From: Harmothoe impar
Taxonomy: Eukaryota > Annelida > Polychaeta > Phyllodocida > Polynoidae
Length of the DNA stretch: 64,000 nucleotides
Direction: 5' to 3'
Assembly (NCBI GenBank): GCA_947462335.1
Contig: OX381707.1
Location: 79,694,610-79,758,609, forward strand
Position numbers and translations under genes: made by a program. Below the pieces are notes generated by a model. It worked only from the letters and a program-made list of their open reading frames with translations. It did no database searches and was not told where the DNA came from. Positions within the stretch are counted from its first letter, which is position 1, and each line of letters opens with the position of its first letter. Positions 31,973 through 46,550 of this stretch are shown in pieces.

Positions 31973-31984
31973 GAGAGGATCCCT

Positions 31985-33202
31985 TTAGGTGGCTCTGCAC
32001 CAATCCTCATCGTTGGATCTCCCATTCAAATTTATGACGGGCGGGATGGAGAAACGCCCCGATCCTTTTGCGCATTCCCCCCAGTAGGAGGGAATGAACC
32101 CCTGAAATCCACCTCTGGCGTTATTCCAGATGTGTTTTTCCAGGGCGGAACCCGACTCGCTTCCCGAGCTGACGTCGGACTGATGTCCAGCAGCCACCTT
32201 CGGGTCGGGCGTCGGGTCGGTTTGGGTGACTGTGGTCACTGGGTCCTTCGTCTGGGAAGGAGATTTTGGAGCCGCAATGTCCATATCGTCCTCCCCTGTA
32301 GCAGACTTCCCTTGGGAAGTACTGCTCGTATCAGATTTATCTGATACTGACCCATCGGTCACAATCCGCTGGGCGTCTGGCACTCTCTTTAACCGGGCTG
32401 ATTCATTCCTCAGGGCTTGGCGACCCCGAGGCTGGACAAAAGGGGATTCACCTTTTGCAACTACCACAGTCCGGATATCCTGACTGTGGGGACTGCTAGT
32501 GCGGGTTGCAGGGTCACCCCTTCGGATGTCCCTGCTGGCCTTAGCTGCAGCCTTCTCCTCTGACTGAGTCAAACTCTTAGTCCGAGTCTTGACCATTTCC
32601 TCCACCGTCTCGACTATGGCTTCGTGACGGCTGAGGCCTTTCTCCGCCATGATTGTTTTCATGCGGTTATAGTCTATCTGATAGACCTTGTAGGATAAGT
32701 TGGACCGTATTGAGTCCCTATATCCTTCAACCGATTTCGGTTCCAACATCCCTACCGGGTTGTATCTGGGGTAGCAAGCTACAGCGAGGGTAGTGGCGCC
32801 GAATGCCCCACACAAAGCGTCATCCGAGATGCGTGTCATCCGAGGTACACACACCCCGACGTCAGCCATCTCAGCGTCGAACAAGCCCTTCCGAAGTGCT
32901 TTACACACCCGGAGGCCTTGCTGTAGATTTTCCCAGGTGGCAAACCACTCTGGGGGCATGATGCGGAGAGCTCCCGCATCAATAAATTCTTGCAACATAT
33001 CCACTATGTCGTTCGGGATAGGTCTGGCTAGGCCTATCTCCGTGGCGCACATCACGTCTGGATGGAGATTCATCTCCCTTCCATCGTAGCAACTTTTACG
33101 AGTTGACTTCACCAGTCTAGCTGGCTTCTCATCCTTCGGGTGGTTATCCGGGTCGATGTTCGGATTACCACACATATCCCACGTATCCTTTAGATGTTGG
33201 GC
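31985..33202 (-). pseudogene. ORF D of the LTR element, 3' part, function unknown
   Basis: This is the continuation of the frame that starts at 43969, displaced by 10.5 kb of Polinton. The first internal ATG is at 33175. The part nearest the Polinton is mixed helical (LARPIPNDIVDMLQEFIDAG, a later ALCGAFGATTLAVACY). A charged region follows, then a Ser/Thr/Asp-rich tail ending in FIPSYWGECAKG and DEDWCRAT. The frame stops with TAA at 31987-31985, and ORF E follows in the same frame 12 nt later. I recognise no protease, RT, integrase or envelope features and no membrane segment. Intact length would be about 480 aa. Confidence 0.65.
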
Positions 33203-33208
33203 CTCCTC
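33203..33208. repeat. Target-site duplication CTCCTC of the Polinton (left)
   Basis: CTCCTC directly precedes the AG end and recurs at 43739-43744. On the minus strand it is GAGGAG, two Glu codons of the host ORF D. Six base pairs is the usual Polinton duplication length. Confidence 0.93.
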
Positions 33209-33600
33209 AGTAGTATAGTATGTATCGGAACGGGACTATAGTTAAGTACTGTTTATTACTCAATCGACATGCAGCCAATCAGAGGCCTCCATTTGGTCAC
33301 GTGACCCGTTGCCATGGTAACGTGACCTACTTAGAGCTCTCAGCCAATCAGAAGCCAGCATTCTGGGTGACCTACTGACCTACTTAGAAGCTCTCAGCCA
33401 ATGAGAGGCTGGCATTCTGGTAACTATGGTAACGTGACCTACTTACGTCACGTGACCTACTTAGGCTCAGCCAATCAGAAGCCGGCATTCTGGTAACTAG
33501 GGTAACGTGACCTACTTAGGGTTTGTTTGTAAACAACACCACGTGGCTCTCTTGTTTGTAAACAACACCACGTGACACGTGACTGTTTGTAAACAAACAA
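33209..33600. repeat. Left terminal inverted repeat of the Polinton (392 bp)
   Basis: It starts AGTAGTATAGTATGTATCGG and matches the reverse complement of 43347-43738 with five substitutions. Inside are CCAAT boxes at 33275, 33344, 33398 and 33471, repeated GTAACGTGACCTACTTA words, palindromic GGTCACGTGACC, several CACGTG E-boxes, and three GTAAACAA forkhead-like motifs near 33528, 33558 and 33589. The composition is promoter-like rather than simple terminal sequence. Confidence 0.95.
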
Positions 33601-33716
33601 CGTATATATAGAAAAAAACACAACAAGTTCCATCTTATGTTAAAATTATATTTTCGAATAAAAAAGCACATCTGTAACAGCGTCTATGTGTAACTACGCG
33701 CGTTCTCATTCAAACA

Positions 33717-34352
33717 CTATAACACTATCATACCGTAGCAGCAGCAGGTAGGACCGGAAGAAAAGCAAGCGCACGAGCAGAAGCGACGACACCATTTGCA
33801 CCATCCGGCCGTCGCGTTGGTAGCCCTACTACCCGTCGCGCGTTCCACTGGAGCGGCTTTAAGAGTGACAAATGACGATTCTTTGTCGACGCGACTGCTA
33901 ACATCAGCATCGGCAGCAGCATCGGCAGCATCGGCAGCAGCATCGGCAGCAGCGGCAGCAGCCTCGGCAGCAGCGGTAGCAGCAGTAGCAGCAGCGGCAG
34001 CAGCAGTAGCGTGAGCATTAGCAACAACAGCAGCAGCGACAGTAGCAAGGGCGGCAGAGCGGGCACTAGTAGCGTTATCACCGGCGTCATCGGCAGCCGC
34101 AACAGCATCAGCAGCAGCAGCGTCGGCATCGGTGGCATGAGTAGCTGCATCGGCGGCAGCAACAGCAGCAGTCACAGCCGCAGCGGCAACAACAACAACG
34201 TCATCACGACCCGCGTCACTAACAGCCGCAGTAAATGCAGCAGTAGCACGCTGAGCAGCACTAGCAGCAGCAGTAGCAGAGGCTACAGCATCAGCTTCAC
34301 ATTCGCGCGCCGCTTCGTCATTCCGCTTCATGTCACGGTAGCAACTTTCCAT
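33717..34352 (-). CDS. Alanine-rich leftward Polinton protein, unknown
   Basis: ATG at 34352 opens a 211-aa frame: MESCYRDMKRNDEAAREC, then a long Ala-rich tract built of GCN codons with Asp, Thr and Val (residues about 20-150), and a cysteine-rich end (GWCKWCRRFCSCACF, later TCCCYG). The frame is open further upstream to a GTG at 34463, but no earlier ATG exists. A TATATAAG box lies about 120 nt upstream on the same strand. All six frames across this GCA-rich DNA are open for long stretches, so frame choice rests on the TATA box, the start context and the Cys-rich end. It could also be a non-coding simple repeat. Confidence 0.45.
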   Translation of the reverse strand: MESCYRDMKRNDEAARECEADAVASATAAASAAQRATAAFTAAVSDAGRDDVVVVAAAAVTAAVAAADAATHATDADAAAADAVAAADDAGDNATSARSAALATVAAAVVANAHATAAAAAATAATAAAEAAAAAADAAADAADAAADADVSSRVDKESSFVTLKAAPVERATGSRATNATAGWCKWCRRFCSCACFSSGPTCCCYGMIVL

Positions 34353-34382
34353 CACGAGGATCTGCAAATTGAGGCGCGGTGC

Positions 34383-34389
<7 letters not shown>

Positions 34390-34427
<38 letters not shown>

Positions 34428-34428
34428 C
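34390..34428. repeat. TAG/GTA trinucleotide run in the leader of the Ala-rich gene
   Basis: A run of (GTA)n lies between the TATA box and the start of the leftward gene. It is a simple repeat and expands the open frame with Leu codons if read from the GTG upstream. Confidence 0.85.
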
Positions 34429-34467
34429 GTGAACGATGATGACGATGCTGAATGTGGTTTCACTCCC

Positions 34468-34475
34468 CTTATATA
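34468..34475 (-). promoter_or_regulatory. TATA box of the leftward Polinton gene
   Basis: The minus strand reads TATATAAG, followed by GGGAGTG, about 116 nt before the ATG at 34352. It heads leftward transcription. Confidence 0.55.
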
Positions 34476-35205
34476 CCCTTACGCCCCGCCTTTTTTCAAG
34501 CCACCGGCCAGCTGCCCCTTCACGGCAGGTCTTTAGATCAGCCTTAAGTCGCTTACTACGTGGCTCATCATCCCTCTAATCGCATTTTCCAGCCGCCAGC
34601 CGGCTGTCTGCTGATGACAGGCGAGGGTGATTTGTTTTTTTCTTTAGATATAAGCCGCTTACCACACGCGCACCCTCTAGTCACAGACAGAGTGACAGAA
34701 AGGGAGGGGGTCGCTTTGTTCACGCTACCTGTAGTTGTTTTTCTATACACACGCTGAGCCTATGACCCGTTAATCCTTTATACAGGTAACACGCGTTCAA
34801 CTAATTACCCTATTGTATGACAGTCGGTACACGGATTTAATTTTAAACCGCCTTCCCATCTGGGATCCATGTCTGGCGGGGTGGAAGGATCCAGCTGAAA
34901 AGTGTGATTAGGGCTTTTGTTTCTCTTATGATAGCAGCAGGTCAGCATGCGACAGCTGAAAATGTCAGACTCGCCGCTCCTATAAAAGACTGAGATGCGT
35001 CTCTCTTTCCACACACCCTTCTACCATCGCCGCCGACACCGCCACCGCCGGCCAGCCGACCGCCGCCACCGCCTGCAGTCACCGCCATCACGCCAGCAGG
35101 GAATTTCGAGCTGAGTCTGCTTATTGCTTATTTTTTTTCTTTGAGCTTTTTGTTTTCTTAAATTTTTATTTTCACTCAGTCTTTTTTGTTTCGGAGGAAA
35201 GAAAT
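34476..35205. promoter_or_regulatory. Divergent promoter region of the Polinton left end
   Basis: 730 bp between two divergently transcribed genes holds a TATA box for each direction (34468-34475 on minus, 34981-34988 on plus). Short open frames in the middle (around 34560-34757) have no supporting features. Apart from the boxes and the CCG-rich leader I see nothing else. Confidence 0.5.
34981..34992 (+). promoter_or_regulatory. TATA box of the 216-aa gene
   Basis: TATAAAAGACTG lies 225 nt before the ATG at 35206. The AAAAGACTG part recurs in the box upstream of the major capsid gene (41196-41204). The leader between is rich in CCGCCACCG words and ends in a long pyrimidine tract with CACTCAG, which could be a 3' splice site, though no paired donor was identified. 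Confidence 0.6.
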
Positions 35206-35856
35206 ATGGCGCTGCAGAGGGCGCGAGTTTCTAAAAGACGGTCGCGCGAACAAAGCGCTCTCCTCAACTGCCCGGCTATTTTTTTATCTCAAAGGAGAGA
35301 GCGTCACGTAGTTGAGGTTCACGCTTCTCTTGAGGCGTACCGAATTCTCGAGAAATGCAAAGCTGAGCGCCATCGTCGTTATACAAGAGCGGAAAAGGAA
35401 AACGTAGCGACATGGCCGAGAGCCGTCTTCTCAGAACAGCATTTACTCTACTATTGCATAACAGCTGCTCTCAGCGCCCCCACTCGTTGGGCGTTTCATG
35501 AAAAGAAAGAGCGCCGCTACTCTCCTCACCCTGCCTCCTCTTATAAAGTGAGAATAAGTGCTATGAAACGATTCGACAAGCCGATCGGTTTCTTGGGAGC
35601 GACTGCAGCTCCCACTCGGTGGGCGCGCGTTGTGGCCGACGTGAACACGGTCTCTAAACGTTTCGACGTCGTCACTTGTTATCCCGCATATTGCAACGCA
35701 GCCGAATTGAAGAAGATAGGGACGCACTATTTTAAACCATACGCTCCAATATGTATTTGTCACCGCCGCGCTCACACGCCTTATTGCTTTTTCGAGACGA
35801 TCGTGTCACAACACAGAAATAGAAAAAAAAACGGCAAAGCGACGAGCTTTGCCTAA
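35206..35856 (+). CDS. 216-aa basic orphan protein of the Polinton
   Basis: ATG at 35206 follows GAAAGAAAT. The protein is basic at its N-terminus (RARVSKRRSREQ), contains APTRWA twice (about residues 91-96 and 136-141), and ends with a Cys/His cluster (ICICHRRAHTPYC) plus a Lys/Arg tail (HRNRKKNGK). The Cys/His cluster could bind zinc. I recognise no family: no PolB, helicase, primase, HUH or TBP-like motif. It occupies the early region where Polintons normally keep replication genes, so a role in replication or host takeover is conceivable but only inferred. An AATAAA and a hairpin follow at 35966-36006. Confidence 0.75.
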   Translation: MALQRARVSKRRSREQSALLNCPAIFLSQRRERHVVEVHASLEAYRILEKCKAERHRRYTRAEKENVATWPRAVFSEQHLLYYCITAALSAPTRWAFHEKKERRYSPHPASSYKVRISAMKRFDKPIGFLGATAAPTRWARVVADVNTVSKRFDVVTCYPAYCNAAELKKIGTHYFKPYAPICICHRRAHTPYCFFETIVSQHRNRKKNGKATSFA

Positions 35857-35857
35857 A

Positions 35858-35863
35858 TGATCA

Positions 35864-35894
<31 letters not shown>

Positions 35895-35971
35895 CTCCTC
35901 CTCCTCCTCCTCCTCCTCCTCCTCCTCCTCTTCTTCCTCCTCCTCTTCTTCTTTTTTTAAAAAAAAATAAA
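35858..35971. repeat. Poly-A run, CTC trinucleotide run and AATAAA after the 216-aa gene
   Basis: About 27 A (35862-35889), then (CTC)n to about 35945, then a T/A-rich stretch with AATAAA at 35966-35971. The AATAAA is a candidate polyadenylation signal for the 216-aa gene. The remaining spacer to 36086 holds only the hairpin. Confidence 0.7.
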
Positions 35972-35973
35972 TA

Positions 35974-36006
35974 TTTGTATCAGACTCCTCTGGAGTCTGA
36001 TACAAA
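35974..36006. terminator. Perfect 15-bp hairpin behind the 216-aa gene
   Basis: TTTGTATCAGACTCC (35974-35988) and GGAGTCTGATACAAA (35992-36006) pair without mismatch around a TCT loop. It directly follows AATAAA and precedes the late gene cluster. It may end or stabilise the transcript, or be a replication or protein-binding palindrome. The type assignment is by position only. Confidence 0.5.
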
Positions 36007-36086
36007 CATTTATGACTATTGAGTGAAAATAGAATTTTATCGCAAAAAAAAGTCACTTCTGCCGCCGCTACTGTGACACCGGCCGG

Positions 36087-36100
36087 TATCAATAAAAAGG
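36087..36100 (+). promoter_or_regulatory. TATA-like box of the virion gene cluster
   Basis: TATCAATAAAAAGG resembles TATAAATAAAAAGA before the major capsid gene (12 of 14 positions). It lies 127 nt before the ATPase start. It also contains AATAAA and may double as a polyadenylation signal for the gene upstream. Confidence 0.5.
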
Positions 36101-36213
36101 TCGGCTGACTTTTCTCCACAACCATTCACTACCGACCGTTCGAGTGAGAAACACAGCAGACAGTCAGACACACAACCGCTCTCTGACGCGTCCTGAAAAA
36201 AAAACAAAAAAAA

Positions 36214-36933
36214 ATGTCCAGTAGTAAAAGCAAACTCTTCACAGAAATTCATTTCGACGCTCGACTACAAGGACCCTTTAGTTGTATCATTAGCGGTCCG
36301 TCGGGTTGTGGAAAATCGCGCTTGGTGGATCAATTTCTGAGCGACGTGAACAATTTGGTCACGCCGCCGGTGGAAAAGACTTTTTACCATTACGGCGAGT
36401 GGCAACCTCTGTTTGAAAAAATGCAAAATCAGTACGGTGTGGAATTCAGAGAAGGTCTTCCTAGCAAAGAGTCTATAGCGGGAGACGTGGAAGTAGCAGA
36501 AGACGCTTTACGACCCCACACTCTACTGATATTGGACGATCTGATGAGCAGTTCCAATCAGCAAGTGGTAGCCGACATCTTTACTAAATACTCGCATCAC
36601 TGGAACGTGAGCGTCATATACATCACTCAGAACCTATTCCAGAAATCACCCGACTTTCGAACTATGAGTCTGAACGCTCACTACATGATCGTTTTCAAGA
36701 ACCCGCGCGACATGGGGCAAATAGCTAGTCTGTCTCGCCAGGTGTTTCCGTCCAACGCGGCGGCCCTCTCTAGTATATTTACCCATGAACTCAAGCGACC
36801 TCACTCATACCTCCTTCTGGACTTCAAGCAGTCAACACCTGACGATCTGAGAATACGCTCCTCTTTGACGTCCATACACTCTCAGCTAGTGTTCGTACCG
36901 CTAGACAAAAAAAAGAACAAGAGAAAGCAGTAG
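36214..36933 (+). CDS. A32/FtsK-HerA-type genome-packaging ATPase
   Basis: 239 aa. It powers DNA translocation into the capsid in Polintons and related viruses. Walker A is GPSGCGKS (residues 28-35), Walker B LLILDDL (104-110), followed by a VIYITQN sensor-like strand (134-140), the order expected for the Polinton A32-like ATPase. Length fits the family. The ATG follows an A-rich leader (nine A, C, eight A). The Lys-rich end (DKKKNKRKQ) precedes the next gene by 9 nt, so these are probably co-transcribed. All motifs are intact. Confidence 0.93.
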   Translation: MSSSKSKLFTEIHFDARLQGPFSCIISGPSGCGKSRLVDQFLSDVNNLVTPPVEKTFYHYGEWQPLFEKMQNQYGVEFREGLPSKESIAGDVEVAEDALRPHTLLILDDLMSSSNQQVVADIFTKYSHHWNVSVIYITQNLFQKSPDFRTMSLNAHYMIVFKNPRDMGQIASLSRQVFPSNAAALSSIFTHELKRPHSYLLLDFKQSTPDDLRIRSSLTSIHSQLVFVPLDKKKNKRKQ

Positions 36934-36942
36934 CAAAAAAAA

Positions 36943-37275
36943 ATGTCTTCTCATCTACTCGAAAGACACTTTGGTACTCTCAAGCACTTAGCTAAGTGCT
37001 CGCCAAAGGACTGCTCGCATCTAATAGACTCTGGAAGCGACGATCTGATCGCAGCGTTAAGTGAGATCTGTCACAATTTACTGGTAGGGAACATCCCGCT
37101 CAGCGACAAACAACTGGACAAGCTTCGAGAATCGGCTGACGTGTTGAGGGAGGTCGGCAAAAAATCTACGCCCATCAAAAAAAAGAGACGCGTCTTGGTA
37201 CAAGAGGGAGGTTTCCTCATTCCGGCTCTCATAGGGATGGCCTTACCGCTTATAAAGAGCATTCTCCGTATATGA
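36943..37275 (+). CDS. Virion core X-like protein (conserved small Polinton protein)
   Basis: 110 aa. It matches a small protein commonly found beside the ATPase and capsid genes in Polintons and adintoviruses: a helical N-terminal part with ALSEICHNLLVGNIPLS, a basic patch (KKSTPIKKKRR, residues 73-83) and a hydrophobic Gly-rich end (GGFLIPALIGMALPLIKSIL). The latter recalls adenovirus pX and membrane-active peptides. Role is inferred as DNA condensation or membrane interaction. Start context is CAAAAAAAAATG with no other spacer. The stop overlaps the next ATG as ATGA. Confidence 0.8.
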   Translation: MSSHLLERHFGTLKHLAKCSPKDCSHLIDSGSDDLIAALSEICHNLLVGNIPLSDKQLDKLRESADVLREVGKKSTPIKKKRRVLVQEGGFLIPALIGMALPLIKSILRI

Positions 37276-38471
37276 GACACCTCATTCGACACCTACTCGC
37301 CGACAGCACCACCACCACCACCACCACCACCACTACCGCCACCACCAGCGTCATTGCCACCGTCGTCCCCATGACGGACTCAGAGCAGCAACAACACTAC
37401 AAACGTTTAGCGCTCGTGGATCCTGAGACGCTCTACAAATCATCACGAGCAGGTCTACTTCATCATGTGCCCGCTGCTGCTGCTACTACTAGCGCTGCTA
37501 CTACTGCAGTCGCTGCTGCTAGTACTTCTACTGCTCCAAACCTTCCTCCTCTTCCTGATGAGCGCACTGAAAAGAACGAGAGTTCCGCTCCTGCCACCGC
37601 CGCCCGCCTACCTGCCGACATGGCCTATTACCACAAGCAGGCAGAACAGGCCCTTCATCCCGACGCGGCCTTGCACCAGGTGCTACAGTTTATCTACAGG
37701 GACTTGGATTTAGTGTTGAACGACCCCACTTTGGAATCGCGCGAGAAAATGTTGAAATACCGAAGGTTGTTGAATAGATTGCAATTTTTTCTCGCGAATC
37801 CCCACAACAGCAACATCTCTTCGTCCTACTCTTCTTCGCCCCCGGCTCACCTCCGTCAGTCTGCTGAAGAGGCCAGCGCGTCCCTACTCGAGCGGTTGGT
37901 GAACCAAGTTCCCAAGAGGAATCGCACTCGGACCGTGGCGCTGTACAAACAATTGGAGAAATCCGGTGTGATCAAGTGGAACGAGGACGGTGCGGTGCGC
38001 GAGATGTCGGGTCGGAGAATACCACCTGAGCGTCGCATCAACATAGTGGACTTACTGAACGACGCCGCCAGGTTCAGGAAGACGGCGCCCAGACCGGCGG
38101 GCTACTCGCCGTTCACGAAAGCGCTGCGCGAAGCAGTTCCCACAGACGCCTTGATCGGAAACCATCTGTATAAAGCGAGCGGACCTGGCCAAAGTTTGGA
38201 CACACGGCTTGCTGACAGAGGTCGGAAACGACCGAGCTTCGACTCGGAAGAAGGAGAAGCAGCAGCAGCAGCAGCAGCAGTAGCAGCAGCAGACTCTTCT
38301 CTCCAGGTGGTGGACGATCAATCCTCTGAAGACGAGGAGAACGACCGTGAACTTTTCCAAACTCCGACTTCCTATAGGAGCGTGCCGCGTAAGAAAAGGA
38401 AAGGGCGCAACCGCCTAGCGGCGAGCTCGTCGTTCACGCCCTCAACAAGCCCACCATGGGCAAACCAGTGA
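37272..38471 (+). CDS. Conserved Polinton hypothetical protein
   Basis: 399 aa from the ATG overlapping the upstream stop, or 366 aa from the ATG at 37371. The later start skips a poly-Thr run and fits better with family members as I remember them. N-terminal low-complexity Ala/Ser/Thr is followed by a conserved core. The core contains LKYRRLLNRLQFF, VALYKQLEKSGVIKWNEDG, IVDLLNDAARFRK and RPAGYSPFTKALREAVP, the pattern of an uncharacterised protein frequent in animal Polintons. The acidic, poly-Ala and basic tail (SVPRKKRKGRNR) suggests nuclear or nucleic-acid contact. Function unknown. The 3' end overlaps the integrase start by 16 nt. Confidence 0.8.
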   Translation: MRHLIRHLLADSTTTTTTTTTTATTSVIATVVPMTDSEQQQHYKRLALVDPETLYKSSRAGLLHHVPAAAATTSAATTAVAAASTSTAPNLPPLPDERTEKNESSAPATAARLPADMAYYHKQAEQALHPDAALHQVLQFIYRDLDLVLNDPTLESREKMLKYRRLLNRLQFFLANPHNSNISSSYSSSPPAHLRQSAEEASASLLERLVNQVPKRNRTRTVALYKQLEKSGVIKWNEDGAVREMSGRRIPPERRINIVDLLNDAARFRKTAPRPAGYSPFTKALREAVPTDALIGNHLYKASGPGQSLDTRLADRGRKRPSFDSEEGEAAAAAAAVAAADSSLQVVDDQSSEDEENDRELFQTPTSYRSVPRKKRKGRNRLAASSSFTPSTSPPWANQ

Positions 38472-39592
38472 AGAGACTGACCAAGAAGGAAAAAGAAAAG
38501 AAGCGCGTAGTAGCTAGATATACCGACGTCAAAGCGCCCTCCAGTTTCACTAGCGTGACTAAACTCCAGAAACATCATTTTCGCCACCTGAACCCGGCCG
38601 TCATCCGAGATGCTTTAGTGTCGCTGGACGCCTACACTAAACATAAACCCATTCGGAGAAAATTCGCAAGGAACAAGACTATAACCGGCGCAATCGATCA
38701 GCAGTGGCAGATAGATCTGATGGACATGCAAGCTTTGGCGTCTCACAACGACCGCTTCCGGTACGTGGTGACGGCGATCGACGTTTTCTCTAGGTACGCG
38801 TGGGCCGTTCCCATTAAATCCAAGAGCGGCGCTGATGTCACCGAGGCCTTCCGAGAGATGACAGGCACTGGCGAGAGACGACCGCGCACTGTTCAGACAG
38901 ACAAGGGGAAAGAGTTTTTGAACAAGATCTTTCAAGATCACTTGAAGAGCGAGGGCATAGAGTTCTTCACTGGCGAGAACGACGACATCAAAGCTAGTCT
39001 AGTGGAGCGCTTGAACCGCAGTCTGAAGGAGAAGCTGTGGCGTTATTTCACACACAAGCGCACGTATCGCTACGTAGACGTACTGCACCATGTAGTGTCT
39101 TCTTACAATCGCACTCACCACAAGACGTTGAAAATGGCGCCGGCTCAAGTCAGCTCGGAAAACAGCGAAACAGTTTTCTACCGACAAGATCTCCCAACTA
39201 ACAAACAAATCGACGAAATATGGAAAAAGAAGAAAAAAACAAAGACGTCCGCCGTCGACGTCATCGCTCCGGGTGACAGAGTGAGGATGTTGAGAACTAA
39301 AGGCGCCTTCGACAAAGGGTACGAGGGAAACTGGCGCGAGGAAGTGGTCGACGTTGCTAAGACGTTGGGAAGCAGAGGGTTCGAGCTGAAAGACGACAAG
39401 GGCGAGGAGATAAAAGGCGTCTTCTACCCGGAAGAGGTTCAGAAGGTGTACAAGAGTCGTTACGACAACAACTACCTGATAGACGAGGTGTTGCGCCGCA
39501 AGACCGTCGACGGTAAAGAGTTAGCTTTCGTACGTTGGTTAGGTTACGACGACAAGTTCAACGAGTGGATCCCCGTCAAAAAAATAACGTAG
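38456..39592 (+). CDS. Retroviral-type integrase with chromodomain
   Basis: 378 aa. It cuts and joins the element ends into host DNA, giving the 6-bp duplication seen here. The RVE core has catalytic D87 (QWQIDLMD), D149 (QTDKGKEF) and E184 (SLVERLNRS), the last two separated by 34 residues. After an SH3-like basic region (GDRVRMLR, about 275) comes a chromodomain-like C-terminus (about 335-375: YLIDEVLRRK, FVRWLGYDDKFNEWIP), as in Polinton and chromoviral integrases. This could bias target choice toward marked chromatin. All catalytic residues are present. Start overlaps the previous gene by 16 nt, and a 22-A spacer follows. Confidence 0.93.
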   Translation: MGKPVKRLTKKEKEKKRVVARYTDVKAPSSFTSVTKLQKHHFRHLNPAVIRDALVSLDAYTKHKPIRRKFARNKTITGAIDQQWQIDLMDMQALASHNDRFRYVVTAIDVFSRYAWAVPIKSKSGADVTEAFREMTGTGERRPRTVQTDKGKEFLNKIFQDHLKSEGIEFFTGENDDIKASLVERLNRSLKEKLWRYFTHKRTYRYVDVLHHVVSSYNRTHHKTLKMAPAQVSSENSETVFYRQDLPTNKQIDEIWKKKKKTKTSAVDVIAPGDRVRMLRTKGAFDKGYEGNWREEVVDVAKTLGSRGFELKDDKGEEIKGVFYPEEVQKVYKSRYDNNYLIDEVLRRKTVDGKELAFVRWLGYDDKFNEWIPVKKIT

Positions 39593-39614
39593 AAAAAAAA
39601 AAAAAAAAAAAAAA
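39593..39614 (+). promoter_or_regulatory. 22-A spacer joining integrase stop and penton start
   Basis: The entire intergenic DNA is 22 consecutive A between TAG and ATG. Shorter A-tracts take the same place before 36214 (A9-C-A8) and 36943 (A8). It may act as a 5' poly(A) leader or reinitiation signal. Sequencing slippage could alter the count. Confidence 0.55.
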
Positions 39615-40733
39615 ATGAACATCACTCTACCTAGCAACAGCTCTATGGAGTATTATCCTGACAACAGCTTGACGTCTTTCCGAACTCACTTCGACTCGCC
39701 GCTCCTTCTGCCCGAAGCGTACGAAGCGGCTCTGACTGAGATCATCCTCCCTACAGAATGGACTAACGTGCACGACGACGACTTGATCATCGTTGTTCCT
39801 CTGCGCACCAAAGGTTCGCTAGAGGAGGCGATCCAGGTTTTAAAAGAAACTAAATTCTCCGAAGGAAAAAAACCACAGGTAGACTGGAAGAGAATGAAAA
39901 ACGCGAACGGTCTGAGCAAGCTAACGTTCAGCTCAAAATTCCCGCTGAACTGGAAGGAAGCGAGCTATGTAACGGTGGAAGAGATATCAGACACGTCGGA
40001 AGAGCAGCAATTGAAACCGGAAACAAAAAGGTTCAAGAGAGAGGTCGACTTGAGACAGACGAATGCCGTATACAAGCAGTTCTTGTCCCCGGCGGTGAAG
40101 AAGAAGACGATCAGCCATCAAGCAAGACAGATGATCGAAAAGATGGAGAAGGACATGGGAGTGCGCAGTTTCATGCCAAACATATTCGAGATACCTCCTA
40201 TTTTCACCGGAAGCAACCACACCCTAATCGAGCGCTTGAGTGAGACGTTGCGAGATGACAGACTAGAGGGCGACAGCTTCTTGCTCAAACCGATGCGGAT
40301 CTTATCGTACGACGCCAAGACGAAACGCGTCACCATCAAACCGCCGAGACACTGTGCTGTCCTGCTGAGTCAGCATCTCGCATGCGTTCTAGGCTTCGGA
40401 GAGAAGACGTGTTTCGCGTCGCCGACTACCGGCGCCTACTCGATGGATGTTTACGGGGACGTGCACTCTGTGTACATATACACAGACATGATCCAGGAGA
40501 GACGTGTGGGCGACATGCAAGTGCCGCTGTTGCGCTGCGTGGCGGTGGACAGAGGCGGAAAGCGTCGAGGTGGCGTGCAAGCTATCAGTTTTCCCCATTT
40601 GGATTATTTCCCCTTGAAATCCAAGAGGTTTACCGAGGTCGGCATCTATTTAAGAGACCGATCCGGTCATTCCATCCCATTCGGTAGAGGCGAGGTGACC
40701 GTGACACTTCATCTGAGACCTATTGAGCGCTGA
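39615..40733 (+). CDS. Penton-like minor capsid protein
   Basis: 372 aa. It is expected to form the vertices of the icosahedral capsid as a single jelly-roll protein. The N-terminus (NITLPSNSSMEYYPDNSLTS, then FRTHFDSPL and EAALTEIILP) and the C-terminus (VGIYLRDRSGHSIPFGRGEV, ending VTLHLRP) are characteristic of Polinton penton-like proteins. The central region is charged and variable. Frame intact and length typical. The next gene follows after 11 purine bases. Confidence 0.9.
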   Translation: MNITLPSNSSMEYYPDNSLTSFRTHFDSPLLLPEAYEAALTEIILPTEWTNVHDDDLIIVVPLRTKGSLEEAIQVLKETKFSEGKKPQVDWKRMKNANGLSKLTFSSKFPLNWKEASYVTVEEISDTSEEQQLKPETKRFKREVDLRQTNAVYKQFLSPAVKKKTISHQARQMIEKMEKDMGVRSFMPNIFEIPPIFTGSNHTLIERLSETLRDDRLEGDSFLLKPMRILSYDAKTKRVTIKPPRHCAVLLSQHLACVLGFGEKTCFASPTTGAYSMDVYGDVHSVYIYTDMIQERRVGDMQVPLLRCVAVDRGGKRRGGVQAISFPHLDYFPLKSKRFTEVGIYLRDRSGHSIPFGRGEVTVTLHLRPIER

Positions 40734-40744
40734 AAGAGAGAAAA

Positions 40745-41170
40745 ATGATGCGTCAACGCGTTCCGTACTTTCCACCCAGGCGCACCGTCGGCAGAGGGTA
40801 CAGCGATTACTACAACGCGCAGCTGGGCAACGGCGTCAACGTGTACAGCGGGCGCTCTTTCCAGAGCGGGCACGGTTTAGGCGGCGCTCTGTTAGGTCTG
40901 ATGCGCTCGGCTACCCCGCTATTGAAGTCGGTGGGAAAAACGCTGCTCCGCGCCGGTGTGGGCGTAGCTAAAGATGTGCTGGCGGGTCGGACTTTAAAGA
41001 GCAGCGTGAAAGACCGAGGCGCAGGCGCTCTGAAGAGACTGGCGAGTACGGCGTTCTCGGGAGGAAAGACGCCTGTCGCGTCTAAGAAAGGGTCGAAACG
41101 TCGCCGGCATTCTCCTCAGACGGGCGGTGGCTCTTGCAAGAGACGTAGAGGGGATGTATTCGACCGGTAA
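40745..41170 (+). CDS. pVI-like virion protein
   Basis: 141 aa. Tyr/Arg-rich N-terminus, then YSGRSFQSGHGLGGALLGLM and an amphipathic helix (TPLLKSVGKTLLRAGVGVAK), ending in a strongly basic tail (SKKGSKRRRHS; CKRRRGD). This layout and its place between penton and hexon genes match the pVI-like protein of adintoviruses, thought to link capsid and genome and perturb membranes. ATG context AAAAATGATG gives a second possible start one codon later. Role inferred from resemblance and synteny. Confidence 0.75.
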   Translation: MMRQRVPYFPPRRTVGRGYSDYYNAQLGNGVNVYSGRSFQSGHGLGGALLGLMRSATPLLKSVGKTLLRAGVGVAKDVLAGRTLKSSVKDRGAGALKRLASTAFSGGKTPVASKKGSKRRRHSPQTGGGSCKRRRGDVFDR

Positions 41171-41187
41171 GCGCCTAGGCGTTCAGG

Positions 41188-41201
41188 TATAAATAAAAAG
41201 A
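41188..41201 (+). promoter_or_regulatory. TATA box of the major capsid gene
   Basis: TATAAATAAAAAGA begins 62 nt before the capsid ATG and 18 nt after the pVI-like stop. It includes AATAAA (41192-41197), possibly a polyadenylation signal for the upstream unit. TCAGTCT near 41218 is an initiator-like site about 30 nt downstream. Confidence 0.65.
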
Positions 41202-41249
41202 CTGGAGGGGGCCGGCGTCAGTCTGTCGGCCGCATGAAGAGAGAACACA

Positions 41250-42554
41250 ATGGCTTACGTACACGAGAGCAGTAACGAGTGTGCGCTCTCTGAGCTCGAC
41301 CTGCACACCGTAGCGCCGACTCAGACTACTATCTTAAAGTCGTCTTTCCTGGGGATAGAAACAAAAAACTCTTTAGAGGATGGAGGTAACATAAATTTCA
41401 CCATCAACAAGTCGCAAGAGTACACAGACCTGAACGAGAATTACCTTCATCTGGAATGTCAAGTGCTAAAGGACGGAGCGGCGATCGAGGACACCGACGC
41501 GGTAGCTCCGGTGAACAACTTGGCTCACTCGCTCTTCAAAGACGTCCAAGTCTCCATCGGCGGTTTCAAAGTGTCTGGCAACACCGAGACCCACCCTTAC
41601 CGAGCTTACTTGGAAGGGTTACTCAACTACAACAAAGACGTGAAGGACGGCGTCATGAGCGCCCAGGGGTGGCATGAAGATACGCCCGGTCAGTTTGACA
41701 CGTTGACTGACGCGAATGCGGGGTACAAAGCGCGCAAGAAGCTAATCTCCAACAAGCGCTTTTCGCTGATGGCGCGACTGCACTTTGACCTGGCTCATCA
41801 ACCGAAGCTCATCGTTGGAGAGACAGAAATCAATCTCACTCTGAAACAAGCGGCGCCCTCTTTCTATCTGATGTGCGCCGCTGACGGAGGCTACAGCTTG
41901 AAGATCTACAAAGCAAAGCTCTACGTGCGACGCGTGCTGGTGGCGGACGCTGTAGCGGAAACGCACGAGAGAGCGGTGATAGAACACGGGCCCTTCGACT
42001 ACCCGGTGAACAGAGTGGAGGTGACGACCTACGCCATCCCTCAAGGTAACAGAGATCACAGCTACACGCACTCCAACACAGGCCAGCTTCCCAAGTCGAT
42101 GATGATTTGCTTCCTTGACCACGACGCCTTCAACGGTAGCTACACCAAGAACCCGTTCGAGATGAAGCATTACGACATCAGCTCGCTTCAAGTGATAGTG
42201 AACGATCAGAAAGTGCCGAACGACGCCTACGTGCCCGACTTTAAGACCAAAGCGGCCGTGAGAGAGTACTTGGCGCTACACACGGAAACGGGGATGTACG
42301 AGGGCGCGCGCTCCTGCGGTATTTCATACGAACAATTCCTGAACGGTTACACGGTGTTCCCCCTCGACTTAACCCCAGACAGATCGCACGACGGGTGTCG
42401 CGTGAACCTTATAAGAGCGGGTCAGCTGAGGGTGGAAGTCAGTTTCCGCTCGGCGCTACAAGCGACAACAACGGTGCTACTCTACTTGGTGTACGACAAC
42501 GTCGTCGAGCTGACCCGAGATCGACACCCCGTCACCGACTACCACATGAACTGA
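41250..42554 (+). CDS. Double jelly-roll major capsid protein (hexon-like)
   Basis: 434 aa. It forms the trimeric capsomers of the virion. The start MAYVHESSNECALSELDLHT, with later YTDLNENYLHLECQV, GGFKVSGNTETHPYRAYLEG and LNYNKDVK, is typical of Polinton major capsid proteins (the F54H12.2-like family). The second half has NPFEMKHYDISSLQV and ends in strands VLLYLVYDNVVELTRDR. Length is slightly short for the family but the frame is intact throughout. It has its own TATA box, so it may be expressed apart from the upstream cluster, with the protease behind it. Confidence 0.93.
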   Translation: MAYVHESSNECALSELDLHTVAPTQTTILKSSFLGIETKNSLEDGGNINFTINKSQEYTDLNENYLHLECQVLKDGAAIEDTDAVAPVNNLAHSLFKDVQVSIGGFKVSGNTETHPYRAYLEGLLNYNKDVKDGVMSAQGWHEDTPGQFDTLTDANAGYKARKKLISNKRFSLMARLHFDLAHQPKLIVGETEINLTLKQAAPSFYLMCAADGGYSLKIYKAKLYVRRVLVADAVAETHERAVIEHGPFDYPVNRVEVTTYAIPQGNRDHSYTHSNTGQLPKSMMICFLDHDAFNGSYTKNPFEMKHYDISSLQVIVNDQKVPNDAYVPDFKTKAAVREYLALHTETGMYEGARSCGISYEQFLNGYTVFPLDLTPDRSHDGCRVNLIRAGQLRVEVSFRSALQATTTVLLYLVYDNVVELTRDRHPVTDYHMN

Positions 42555-42583
42555 AGACAAGACGGCGGTACTTGGCGTATCGT

Positions 42584-43036
42584 ATGAACACGCTTGAAAT
42601 AAGCAGAGTGTTGAAGGAAAACGTTCACACAAAACATCGTTTCCTGGGCGTTTTCTCTTGTGACACTATTCCGAAGCACCCTATCAAAGACACTTGTTTC
42701 GTGAGCAACACAGATCCGCAACATTTACCAGGTCAGCATTGGGTGGCGTTTTACGTGTCGAGCACGGGTGAAGTGTACTACTTTGATTCCTTCGGCTTAC
42801 CGCCGCTGAGTGCGGAGTTCTTGTCTTTCGTGGAACGCTCTGCTCCGTTCAAGTGGCAAAGAAACCGCATTCAACTACAAGACACTTCTGCTGACACCTG
42901 TGGACCTCATTGCGTTCATTTCCTAATTGAAGCATGTCGAACAAGAAACCCCAAGAAGTGCGTCATGCGCATGAGCAAAATCCCAAAGCTGAGCGACCGG
43001 GTCGTGAGTCAGAAGCTATCGATGATGCTGTTGTGA
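42584..43036 (+). CDS. Adenain-like cysteine protease
   Basis: 150 aa. A Ulp1/adenain-fold protease that matures virion proteins. Catalytic pattern: H52 (GQHWVAFY), D68 (YYFDSFG), Q98 (RIQLQD) and C106 (DTCGPHC). I chose the ATG at 42584, 29 nt after the capsid stop, because the open frame further upstream lies within the capsid gene. Length is shorter than the roughly 200 aa of adenovirus protease but usual for Polintons. The 3' end overlaps the next ORF. Confidence 0.92.
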   Translation: MNTLEISRVLKENVHTKHRFLGVFSCDTIPKHPIKDTCFVSNTDPQHLPGQHWVAFYVSSTGEVYYFDSFGLPPLSAEFLSFVERSAPFKWQRNRIQLQDTSADTCGPHCVHFLIEACRTRNPKKCVMRMSKIPKLSDRVVSQKLSMMLL

Positions 43037-43233
43037 CGGGTTGTTGCGATGGCGGCCGTTTCATGGAGGCAAAGATTCTCTGCCTTGCCGAAATGGTGTT
43101 GGATTTATCCAAAGTCGTGCAATGTCTATTGGAGAAAAGTCGTCCGGGGTGTGGTGGTGCGAGTGACGGCGGCGTGAGACTTTGCGGCCTGTTGAGTTGC
43201 TGCAAATCGAAGAAGCAAGCTAAAAAAGCATAA
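42934..43233 (+). CDS. Small cysteine-rich ORF overlapping the protease
   Basis: 99 aa from an ATG inside the protease gene, or 56 aa from the ATG at 43063 just after the protease stop. The second half contains LCLAEMVLDLSKVVQCLLEK, then clustered cysteines (LCGLLSCCKSKKQAKKA) with a basic tail. AATAAA signals follow at 43266 and 43273. No family recognised. The later start avoids the overlap and gives a helix plus Cys/Lys tail that could be acylated; this is speculation. Confidence 0.45.
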   Translation: MSNKKPQEVRHAHEQNPKAERPGRESEAIDDAVVTGCCDGGRFMEAKILCLAEMVLDLSKVVQCLLEKSRPGCGGASDGGVRLCGLLSCCKSKKQAKKA

Positions 43234-43265
43234 ACTTGTGTGTTTTTTCTGATTGAAAATGAAAA

Positions 43266-43278
43266 AATAAAGAATAAA
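43266..43278 (+). terminator. Polyadenylation signals of the Polinton late unit
   Basis: AATAAA occurs at 43266-43271 and 43273-43278, about 30 nt after the last stop. It is the only clear pair of signals on the plus strand between the protease and the right inverted repeat. Confidence 0.65.
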
Positions 43279-43346
43279 ATGAAAAGAAAAGAAATTATCT
43301 TGTTGTGTTTTTATTTCTATATATAAGTTACATAACTTTTTTTTGT

Positions 43347-43738
43347 TTGTTTGTTTACAAACAGTCACGTGTCACGTGGTGTTGTTTACAAACAAGAAAG
43401 CCACGTGGTGTTGTTTACAAACAAACCCTAAGTAGGTCACGTTACCCTAGTTACCAGAATGCCGGCTTCTGATTGGCTGAGCCTAAGTAGGTCACGTGAC
43501 GTAAGTAGGTCACGTTACCATGGTTACCAGAATGCCGGCCTCTGATTGGCTGAGAGCTTCTAAGTAGGTCAGTAGGTCACCCAGAATGCTGGCTTCTGAT
43601 TGGCTGAGAGCCCTAAGTAGGTCACGTTACCATGGCAACGGGTCACGTGACCAAATGGAGGCCTCTGATTGGCTGCATGTCGATTGAGTAATAAACAGTA
43701 CTTAACTATAGTCCCGTTCCGATACATACTATACTACT
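43347..43738. repeat. Right terminal inverted repeat of the Polinton (392 bp)
   Basis: Reverse complement of the left repeat with five substitutions (about 98.7 percent identity), ending TACTACT at 43738. The inner edge is in an ACAAACAAAC-type run, so the exact length is fuzzy by a few bases. Confidence 0.95.
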
Positions 43739-43744
43739 CTCCTC
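43739..43744. repeat. Target-site duplication CTCCTC of the Polinton (right)
   Basis: Second copy of the duplicated hexamer, directly after the CT end of the element. Confidence 0.93.
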
Positions 43745-43969
43745 CTTCTCTATTTTTAGAGCAAGAAGACGATCTTTTTCATGAAGACTCCTTCGTTCAG
43801 CCTCAGCGAGAGCTGATTCAGACGTGGATACATCCATGTCTTCTTCTTCGAGGAGTTGCTCCTCGAAGCGAGTAACAGGGCTGGCGGCACCAGCACTGTC
43901 TTCGTGGGGCAGATCGGCCATGTTGTGTGGCCGTTCCCCTCCGCCCAACTCGAGCTGCCGTGAGGCCAT
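43739..43969 (-). pseudogene. ORF D of the LTR element, 5' part (cut by the Polinton)
   Basis: ATG at 43969 (MASRQLELGGGERPHN) opens a frame rich in acidic and leucine residues. It reaches the Polinton right end after 77 codons; the last two codons are the duplicated GAGGAG. The remainder lies beyond the Polinton at 33202-31985 in the same phase, so the interruption is clean. No known domain is recognised. A TATA-like box and two hairpins lie just upstream, between gag and this start. Confidence 0.7.
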
Positions 43970-43982
43970 GCTGGGTTGGGCG

Positions 43983-44043
43983 CTCTTATTTATACTAAAT
44001 AAGAGTCCTAACTAATACTACAGGTCTTTGTGGAGGACCTGTT
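43983..44043 (-). promoter_or_regulatory. TATA-like box and two hairpins between gag and ORF D
   Basis: CTCTTATTTA (43983-43992) and TAAATAAGAG (43996-44005) form a perfect 10-bp stem with a 3-nt loop. ACAGGTC and GACCTGT (44021-44043) form a second stem. Minus-strand TATAAATAAG falls inside the first, 14 nt before the ORF D ATG. This could be an internal promoter or an RNA structure governing ORF D expression. Function is inferred from position only. Confidence 0.4.
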
Positions 44044-44227
44044 CTCCTTTTGAAACGTATTCACCCACTTTTGACGCTTGAATTCGGTTCCTATTAGATC
44101 CTCCTCGTTGGCCAGCACACCGTGCCGGCGAAGATTCGAAATCTAATGAACCAAAAGGACCCCTTTGTGCAGAGGTCACGCGCATCCACGCGCGTCTCGG
44201 GCCCTCCGCGAGACTGCCCTAACTAGG

Positions 44228-46550
44228 TCACTCATTGACCCAGTTCTTTTCCCGCGCCCGCAGGGCACCGGTGCTCTTATTATAAACAGGTGCTTCGGGT
44301 AGTAGCCGAACCTTTCGCAACCAACAGCTCTGCTGGAGTATTAGTGAGGTTAGTGAGGAATCGCTTTTCCAAGCTTTTCTGGTTAGTTCCTGATGATCAG
44401 GGTCACTCAGTCCGCTAATAAACCGGAGAAAGAGAGTCTCGATATAGTAATCGGCGTCTCTAGCCCATTCGGGTCTTGCCTGATGCAGAATTCGTTGAAG
44501 CTCTAGACCATATATCTTTGGGGACTCTTTTGGTTTCTGGGTTCGTCCCTTGAAGACCAACCAGTGATCCACGGTCACCAGGTTCCCAAAGATATATACA
44601 GCAGTACTTTCGAGCTGATCATATGTACCAGAAGGGCCATATGTACTTCTCCATTGGGAGACTGCTGATTTACCTGGCCCATCATTTAGCCAGATTACGA
44701 AGGCTCCTAATGAGTCTTCTTAAGACCACCCATTGTATTTGCAGTCATCCACAAATATTTGGTATTCATCTTTCCAGGGTCCTTTCCCTTTGTAGGGTTT
44801 GGTGATCCTGGCGGTGCGTCGGGCACCCCTGGTGGCCCCCTCTATCAGCTGATCTGATAGATTCCGGCTCCAGTCCATTTCAGTGGCATCTTGTCCCCGG
44901 CTATAGCTATCTAAGCCAAGGTTCTTGATACAAGGATCAGTATCATAAACCTGTCTCAGTCCGGGAGCCATTGAGGTTCTTCGGGTCAATGGTCGGACTG
45001 GAGAGACTGGTTCGCACCTGGGAAACCGGGTGGGTCGAGGGCGAGAAGTGGTACCCAGATAAGGGGGAACACTCCCGGTGGTTGTCTGGTCATGGGTTTG
45101 GGGTCTAGGCCGACTTCCCTGACCAGTTGTGGGTCTATCAGGACTATCAGTACGGGGGTACTGTCGGTTCTGATCCCTAGACCATCCAGCAGAAGGTCCT
45201 TCCCCGGCTCTCTTGCCTCGGGTTGCATGCCCCCGGGTTTGATTTCCCGGAGTTCTCCCTTCTCTGGTCTCTGCCTCCTGGTTATTATGGAAAATCAGGT
45301 CACCCCAATTATCATAACCATACCACCCCCCCTGTTGATCCTCATGGGTGGTGGTGTTCTTGCTCGTACCCGAAGGGGGTGGAACAGCTCCATACTGAGA
45401 TGGACTATCCCCAGCGAAGGGGTTCAAGGTGTCATAACTATCGACTCCCGACGCACTTCCCGCGGAATATGCCGTCGGATCGATGGTTACCGAAGGTCCC
45501 GTTGGAGCAGGGGGAGCAGATGTATAGTAGACATCTTTCTCTACCTGTCCTCCGGAAGGGTATCGGGCGGTGGGTTTTAGAACTCCTTGGAGTGGAGGGT
45601 TCTCCACTCCTTCCCCAGGGGTGAGGGTCACCTCTGGGTCAGGTACCTTCTGGTTACCTAGGTAGAGTTCCAACTCTACTCGTCTAGCTTCCAGTATAGA
45701 TACCGCCTACATCCCCTCGAGCTTCTTCTGATCTAATTCTTCGTTTGCTTTTATGATAGTGGTTCTTACTGCCTCATTGTCTTCCACCTGCTGGTTGCGA
45801 GCGTCCTTGGCGGGGTGCCATTCCCTAGAGTATCTTTCTAGGTCCGCCTGATACTGTTGTTGGCAGGCATAAGACTTCCGGTTAGCTTGACCTAACTCGG
45901 ATAATCTTTTTTTTTTCAGCTTTCAGGGTTTCCTGATTTTTCTCCATCTGGCCTTGGACCAGTTGGTTGTCACGGGTCAACTGCTCCGTTCTCCACTCCA
46001 TATCCTGATGGACCTGTCTATTCTCTAGGATGTACCTATTCCTTTCAGAGATCAACGAAACCAATTCGTCGTGCAGAGCATCGTACTGCTTGTTCATTTC
46101 TTCCTTTTTCCGGTAATTGTTGTCCCGATCCAAGGTGTCGTCCTGATTAAGATCAGGTTGGGTCCCGACAATGGGACCTCCTTCGGGTACAACCCGAAGG
46201 GGTTGTGGCGGTATTTCTATTACCGTCCGGTCCAGAAATGAGCCTTTCTGATTCGCTCTTTTCTTTCCTCCGGGAAAGAAAACGGAGTCAGTCGTGTTGA
46301 ACAAAGAATGCCCAGTGTTCAACATGATTTGGCCCTGAGTGGCAATGAAGTTCGGTGTGAACCCCCTTGCTTCCTCCGGATCCATCTGGTCCACTCGGGT
46401 GGACTCCAGTTCTCCTTCTTCCAAAGTCGCTCCTGGATTTAAAGCTCCTTCGGTTTCACGCATGAAACCCTCGAAGCTGGGCGGAACAACTGGGTTGTTC
46501 CGCTCCGGGACGTTACCGTCCCCATACTCTCCTACTCCGGCCAGGTTCAC
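44228..46550 (-). pseudogene. gag of the LTR element, broken by one frameshift and two stops
   Basis: Three open pieces cover one coding region: 46550-45882, about 45705-44720 and 44717-44228. The phase changes at an A-run (plus-strand T-run about 45907-45916). An in-frame TAG lies near 45710 and a TAA at 44722-44720; the last two pieces share one frame. The first ATG is at 46463, although the frame is open from about 46577. The N-terminal part ends in a long charged coiled coil, the middle is Gly/Pro/Ser/Tyr-rich, and the C-terminal part (ETLFLRFISGLSDPDHQELT, with WLRKV after) resembles a retroelement capsid helical domain. No CCHC knuckle is seen. Total length would be about 770 aa. The call rests on position and capsid-like pattern. 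Confidence 0.65.

What the first reader, a model, noticed from the sequence alone, without database searches (positions are those of the whole stretch)
33209..43738. A capsid-complete Polinton with integrase but no DNA polymerase B
Every morphogenesis gene expected of an adintovirus-like Polinton is present and open, and the ends and hexamer duplication show normal integration. Yet the hallmark protein-primed PolB is absent, and no space larger than about 0.75 kb is free of assigned genes. Either it is a packaged satellite that borrows a polymerase, or its two orphan left-end genes recruit the host replisome. It could be a distinct lineage of small Polintons.
Basis: partly seen in the sequence, partly recalled or inferred. 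Interest (0 to 1): 0.9.

Follow-up and report, generated by a model that had tools for sequence, protein, structure and literature searches.

The report
Polinton split into two complementary units

Summary
In detail: a 10,530-bp Polinton with 392-nt inverted repeats and a 6-bp target duplication has integrase, packaging ATPase, protease and a double-jelly-roll capsid, and no PolB. The genome holds roughly 6,900 elements with the same ends (6,924 + 6,931 terminal 33-mers). A sample of 40 complete ones falls into classes: A (window type; 10), B (1,384-aa PolB, PC4-like and Death-domain proteins, no capsid or integrase found; 10), C (10) and D (9), gene-poor where read, and one PolB remnant. By listed exact gene matches all 10 A hold capsid, all 10 B hold PolB, 0 of 40 both. 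Genome-wide: 1,633 capsid and 2,512 PolB matches. The only listed capsid-PolB pair within 10.5 kb on C1 (to 105 Mb) is a B unit freshly inserted into an A unit. Classes share the outer ~60-98 bp, then differ. The 40 span 8.7-10.5 kb (two with later inserts aside), gene-poor ones included, hinting at capsid-size packaging. Best reading: a split, mutually dependent Polinton with two full-size satellites. Trans-replication and packaging are inferred.

The parts
33203..33208 (.). target-site duplication, left copy (CTCCTC)
   Evidence: sequence
33209..33600 (+). left terminal inverted repeat; outer ~60-98 bp shared with classes B, C, D; inner part class-specific with CCAAT-like and CACGTG modules
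33717..34463 (-). 248-aa Ala-rich low-complexity ORF (real gene uncertain)
   Evidence: no Pfam
35206..35856 (+). 216-aa orphan protein; only 3 homologues found (79-97%)
36214..36933 (+). packaging ATPase, 239 aa
   Evidence: Pfam Adeno_IVa2; Walker A
36943..37275 (+). 110-aa ORF, unknown
37272..38471 (+). 399-aa ORF, unknown
   Evidence: no Pfam
38456..39592 (+). integrase (rve) with C-terminal chromodomain-like match
   Evidence: Pfam; DD34E
39615..40733 (+). 372-aa ORF, candidate penton (by position only)
   Evidence: unverified
40745..41170 (+). 141-aa basic Gly/Lys/Arg-rich ORF, candidate core protein
   Evidence: inference
41250..42554 (+). major capsid protein, double jelly-roll, 434 aa
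42584..43036 (+). adenovirus-type cysteine protease, 150 aa from this ATG
   Evidence: Pfam Peptidase_C5 on the longer frame from 42395
43347..43738 (-). right terminal inverted repeat
43739..43744 (.). target-site duplication, right copy (CTCCTC)
   Evidence: sequence

Best explanation
The window element is the capsid-and-integrase unit of a Polinton split over separate elements that share their ends: a second ~9.5-kb unit carries the DNA polymerase, and the two likely replicate, package and integrate each other in trans. Shown: the shared ends, the complementary gene content, the separate integration of each unit with its own 6-bp duplication, and many near-identical copies of both. Inferred: class-B PolB starts protein-primed copying at the common ~60-98-bp terminus of every class; class-A capsid, ATPase and protease package the linear copies; class-A integrase inserts them. 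Classes C and D carry the same ends but little coding sequence where read and are likely satellites kept near unit length by capsid size.
For: Ends: 6,924 + 6,931 terminal 33-mers at <=2 mismatches, reversed-pattern control 0/0. Between one reference element of each class, 58-60 of 60 outer bases agree; over 98 bases, 95-97 agree among A, B, C and 87-89 against D. Gene content of 40 complete elements (classes): A 10, all with a listed capsid 36-mer, none with a listed PolB 36-mer; B 10, the reverse; C, D, E 20, neither (from the lists). All 10 B elements were also shown by sequence to carry PolB. No class-A protein matches the class B, C, D, E pieces read, and no class-B protein matches the window element. 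Class B: PF03175 28.7 bits over cut-off 25.8, Death domain over cut-off, PC4 below cut-off; exonuclease and polymerase motifs present (motif meanings recalled). 34 of 34 scored PolB copies are full length at 99-100% identity, 31 without a stop. Separate movement: 6-bp duplications in 8 of 8 and 4 of 4 elements where both ends were read and in the window; a B unit sits inside the integrase gene of an A unit with duplication ATGGTG and both 150-bp flanks 100% identical to the window. Of the 83 capsid and 100 PolB places listed on C1 up to 105.1 Mb, one pair lies within 10.5 kb (1.7 expected by chance), and it is that nested case. Many near-identical copies: 40 of 40 scored ATPase copies 100% identical. 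Size: the 40 complete elements are 8.7-10.5 kb except two of 13.2 and 15.9 kb, which carry, by eye, a reverse-transcriptase-like ORF and a tandem expansion.
Against: No replication, packaging or trans-mobilisation was observed. The place lists are capped at 100 and show exact matches only, so copies with mismatches may be missing: the sample favours young elements, and a complete parent with these ends and diverged genes could be missed. Ten of the 20 C/D/E elements or more were typed by their ends alone. The copies scored are the best candidates and do not give the intact fraction. Other PolB families in this genome are open and could serve as helpers. The 40 elements come from one 5.2-Mb stretch of C1 with about twice the mean density, and 20 of its 100 listed termini were left unpaired. 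Genome-wide PolB exceeds capsid (2,512 v. 1,633; the PolB 36-mer lies in a conserved motif and may include relatives), so the equal numbers in the sample are not exact. The similarity between classes beyond 100 bp did not beat a shuffled gapped control.
Confidence: 0.75

Rival explanations
1. A rare complete master Polinton with the same ends still exists, and A, B, C and D are all its non-autonomous derivatives that happen to have complementary deletions.
For: Non-autonomous elements move when the machinery is supplied in trans by complete ones (PMC6431247, passages). A public protein pair (capsid P0007, PolB P0109) with the same reported contig length, 12,657 bp, suggests a one-piece relative elsewhere. 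The place lists used here are capped and exact-match only.
Against: 0 of 40 complete elements show both genes; among the 83 capsid and 100 PolB places listed on C1 up to 105 Mb the only pair within 10.5 kb is a nested insertion. The scored copies of both units are near identical and mostly open.
Confidence: 0.14
2. Class A is a satellite that uses the PolB of unrelated Polinton families in the same genome; class B is a separate element that merely resembles it at the ends.
For: Other PolB families exist: 129 PF03175 matched stretches from 83 scored candidates of 695, many open.
Against: Class-B ends are the same as class A's; 10 of 10 other PolB loci tested lack this terminus in the 1.5 kb read (the stop positions were not mapped, so a more distant end could be missed), and the 1,177-1,189-aa family is only 23-27% identical to class-B PolB in two stretches.
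Confidence: 0.06
3. The two orphan left-end ORFs recruit the host replisome.
For: The 216-aa protein is identical in 5 of 8 copies read.
Against: No Pfam match in either ORF; an open PolB with the same ends is at hand.
Confidence: 0.02

Closest known systems
Polintons/Mavericks and adintoviruses (one-piece, e.g. three Drosophila-associated adintoviruses of 13.3-14.6 kb, PMC8363768, passages)
   Same: inverted repeats, 6-bp duplications (recalled as typical), rve integrase, ATPase, protease, double-jelly-roll capsid, PolB of family PF03175
   Different: here capsid and integrase lie on one element and PolB on another; each is about 10 kb; thousands of copies; gene-poor full-length companions
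Bidnaviridae (Bombyx mori bidensovirus, two segments; Vesanto virus, up to twelve; PMC4061559 and PMC8363768, passages)
   Same: Polinton-type PolB, several linear segments with similar or conserved termini
   Different: bidnaviruses have a parvovirus-type capsid and single-stranded segments (6.5 and 6 kb in bidensovirus), and no integrase in the passages read; here a Polinton capsid and integrase, and integrated units
Non-autonomous DNA transposons sharing ends with a helper
   Same: mobilised in trans through common ends
   Different: the two coding units are mutually incomplete, and the gene-poor ones in the sample stay at 8.7-9.8 kb instead of shrinking

Membership tests
Polinton/Maverick (element A alone) | terminal inverted repeats and 6-bp target duplication | tested here: met
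Polinton/Maverick (element A alone) | retrovirus-type integrase | tested here: met
   rve 3.2e-13; DD34E
[quoted passage not shown]
   present on the separate class-B element
Polinton/Maverick (element A alone) | packaging ATPase, adenovirus-type protease, double-jelly-roll capsid | tested here: met
Polinton/Maverick (element A alone) | minor capsid (penton) protein | tested here: inconclusive
   372-aa ORF
Adintovirus (pair A+B) | integrase with C-terminal chromodomain (definition from PMC11071296, passages) | tested here: inconclusive
   Chromo 8.5e-4 at residues 341-374, below the curated cut-off
Adintovirus (pair A+B) | PolB with OTU-like N-terminal domain (same source) | tested here: inconclusive
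   no OTU Pfam match in the 1,384-aa PolB
Adintovirus (pair A+B) | capsid (hexon) recognisable by BLASTp against adintovirus references (same source) | not tested
   no named adintovirus reference was compared by sequence
Adintovirus (pair A+B) | single-piece genome (13.3-14.6 kb in the three of PMC8363768) | tested here: not met
Bidnaviridae | parvovirus-type single-jelly-roll capsid | tested here: not met
   capsid is double jelly-roll
Bidnaviridae | superfamily 3 helicase | tested here: inconclusive
   none among class-B matches; the class-A ATPase gives PF00910 RNA_helicase just over cut-off, with Adeno_IVa2 better
Segmented virus | segments co-packaged or co-transmitted | not testable with these tools
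   needs virions or reads

The most novel reading that the evidence does not exclude
A multipartite integrating double-stranded DNA virus: at least two coding segments (capsid/integrase and polymerase/Death-domain) plus two gene-poor, capsid-length satellite segments, separately packaged, all replicated from one ~60-98-bp terminus, which together fill about 4% of a 1.5-Gb genome with some 6,900 insertions.
Probability: 0.5. Interest if true: 0.92.

Novelty: new variant of a known kind. Interest (0 to 1): 0.86.

Why it matters
Genome segmentation is known for bidnaviruses, which are thought to have taken their PolB from Polintons (PMC4061559, abstract and passages), but seven literature searches here (listings, plus passages of five papers) showed no segmented Polinton or adintovirus. 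A Polinton split into complementary units would be a direct model for how segmented DNA viruses arise: partial elements held together by common ends. Gene-poor companions that stay at 8.7-9.8 kb would be genomic evidence that Polintons are packaged in capsids; a 2021 abstract (PMC7805220, seen in listings) says an extracellular form had yet to be detected.

Tried and rejected
Deletion derivative of a PolB-bearing parent with the same ends: not seen in the sample (0 of 40). PolB hidden in 33.6-36.2 kb: no match. Viral contigs of IMG/VR: no relatives of capsid, ATPase, PolB, or of the two alignments. Structure of the 372-aa ORF without an alignment: pLDDT 34, not used. Counting class D genome-wide: the machine did not answer. 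Class C was not counted genome-wide. Similarity of subterminal repeats between classes: the shuffled control reached the same level (max 188), so no claim is made. Equal proportions 10:10:10:9 as evidence of stoichiometry: not claimed, since genome-wide PolB (2,512) exceeds capsid (1,633).

Full report
The element. Inverted repeats of 392 nt (33209-33600, 43347-43738) are 99% complementary, and CTCCTC flanks both sides. Pfam finds the ATPase, an rve integrase and an adenovirus-type protease over their cut-offs, and a chromodomain match below its cut-off. The 434-aa protein has 75 listed homologues; its model (pLDDT 81) matches double-jelly-roll capsids of PBCV-1 and mavirus. The 372-aa ORF is a penton by position only. 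No PolB was found. The 216-aa orphan has three homologues, all close.

Copies. The window lies in a 1.51-Gb genome of unknown name; the host is probably an animal, since named PolB relatives come from molluscs, echinoderms, cnidarians and a comb jelly (inference). An ATPase DNA query gave 1,130 first-look candidates; all 40 scored were 100% identical over 717 bp. The first 33 bases of the end, at up to two mismatches, occur 6,924 and 6,931 times on the two strands, with zero in the reversed control. That is about 6,930 elements if each has two ends or, at ~9.7 kb, roughly 4% of the genome (inference). The tool listed 100 places, all exact, C1:68,939-5,244,914; consecutive inward-facing termini give 40 complete elements, and 20 termini stay unpaired. 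If exact places are listed first, elements with changed ends are missing from this sample.

Classes. The 40 elements are not all alike. Ten measure 10.34-10.54 kb and match the window. The others share only the outer ~100 bp with it, short patches aside. I read eight elements as two pieces each: one A, one B, three C, two D and one odd element, E. The remaining five, all A, were placed by length and an exact ATPase copy. Result: A 10, B 10, C 10, D 9, and E (L053/L054), with a broken, diverged PolB and unlike repeats at its two ends. One B element (C1:1199398) had no match at its left end and was placed by its right end and by PolB. Seven C and seven D elements rest on their ends and on the absence of listed capsid and PolB matches.

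Class B. The reference B element (C1:519325-528871, 9,547 bp, loci L041/L042) encodes a Death-domain protein, a protein ending in a PC4-like stretch (below cut-off), and a 1,384-aa PolB frame over the Pfam cut-off with exonuclease and polymerase motifs and a Vsr-like insert (weak PDB match, E about 0.01). A protein search of the genome scored 34 of 7,589 candidates: all full length, 99-100% identical, 31 without a stop. Of ten of these, nine have the exact terminus about 0.7 kb past the PolB stop; five of five left ends were also found; four of four elements read at both ends are 9,464-9,530 bp with perfect and different 6-bp duplications. Eight of eight earlier elements, from classes A to E, also have perfect duplications.

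Complementarity. In the sample every A holds a listed capsid 36-mer and no listed PolB 36-mer, every B the reverse, and the 20 others neither. Six capsid and three PolB places in the same stretch lie outside the 40 pairs. Genome-wide there are 1,633 capsid and 2,512 PolB 36-mer matches at up to three mismatches, controls zero; the PolB 36-mer covers a conserved motif and could include relatives. The lists show 100 exact places each. Of those on C1 up to 105.1 Mb (83 capsid, 100 PolB), six pairs lie within 20 kb (3.2 expected) and one within 10.5 kb (1.7 expected). That one is a 9,539-bp B unit inside a 20,074-bp span, leaving 10,535 bp, the length of an A unit; its flanks match the window's integrase gene at 100% over 150 bp each with duplication ATGGTG. 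So B moves on its own, recently, and even into A.

Ends. Reference elements of classes A, B, C, D agree at 58-60 of the first 60 bases; A, B and C agree at 95-97 of 98, D at 87-89 of 98 against the others. Further in, each class has its own repeat. Left and right repeats within an element agree well (A 390/400, B 331/367, C 372/387, D 399/400 aligned bases; B and C with gaps). This is the pattern of segmented viruses with common termini; for Vesanto virus many putative segments show similar inverted repeats, and for bidensovirus conserved termini were used to argue how the second segment arose (passages).

Classes C and D. In the pieces read, C keeps an Ala-rich ORF with a conserved start (96-98% over 57 aa) and a 117-aa ORF, 95% identical in one other copy and shorter in a third; D has no ORF of 150 codons or more. 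Yet C is 8.7-9.8 kb (two more with later inserts, 13.2 and 15.9 kb) and D 9.2-9.8 kb. No complete element under 8.7 kb was seen among 40. I read this as a packaging limit; it is inference.

Mechanism. Class-B PolB would start at the common terminus by protein priming (an established property of this polymerase family, recalled), copying all classes. Class-A proteins would package and integrate them. Class A alone could not replicate and class B alone could neither integrate nor be packaged, unless other helpers act. Other PolB families exist in the genome (129 matched stretches), but ten of ten loci tested lack this terminus in the 1.5 kb read.

Relatives. Public protein clusters hold close relatives of both partners: capsid 72-95% (P0001-P0006), PolB 68-100% (P0076-P0078).

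Literature. Seven searches showed no segmented or split Polinton or adintovirus in their listings. I read passages of PMC11071296, PMC12220804, PMC8363768, PMC4061559 and PMC6431247. The library holds only open papers, so absence in print is not shown.

Verdict. A split, mutually dependent Polinton is well supported in anatomy; its workings are inferred.

Noticed in passing
window 30179-33175 and 43706-45673, - strand: ORFs on both sides of the element (597, 396, 317 and 116 aa) look like parts of a higher-GC repeat, possibly a retroelement, into which the Polinton inserted; none of these four has a Pfam match at E<=0.01.
   Followed up: partly
L041:1269-2120 (-): The PolB unit encodes a protein with two Death-domain stretches, as if to meddle with host cell-death or immune signalling.
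   Followed up: partly
L009-L020 and the places: The genome holds other PF03175 PolB families, likely Polintons, with open frames of about 1,180 and 1,400-1,560 aa.
   Followed up: partly
L053/L054 (C1:2884121-2894001): An element with unlike repeats at its two ends, broken PolB pieces and two related copies of a ~263-aa ORF of unknown kind in opposite orientation: a possible recombinant between classes.
   Followed up: partly
L051/L052 (C1:4267525-4283450): A class-C element enlarged to 15.9 kb by tandem copies of a ~1.13-kb unit.
   Followed up: no
G000 C1, first 5.25 Mb: Elements look about twice as dense here as the genome mean: 100 exact termini against about 48 expected from the genome-wide count; 16 of the 100 listed capsid places on C1 fall in this stretch.
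   Followed up: no
window 33209-33600 and 43347-43738: The repeats are packed with CCAATCAGA and CACGTG modules, resembling promoter or factor-binding sites near a replication end.
   Followed up: no
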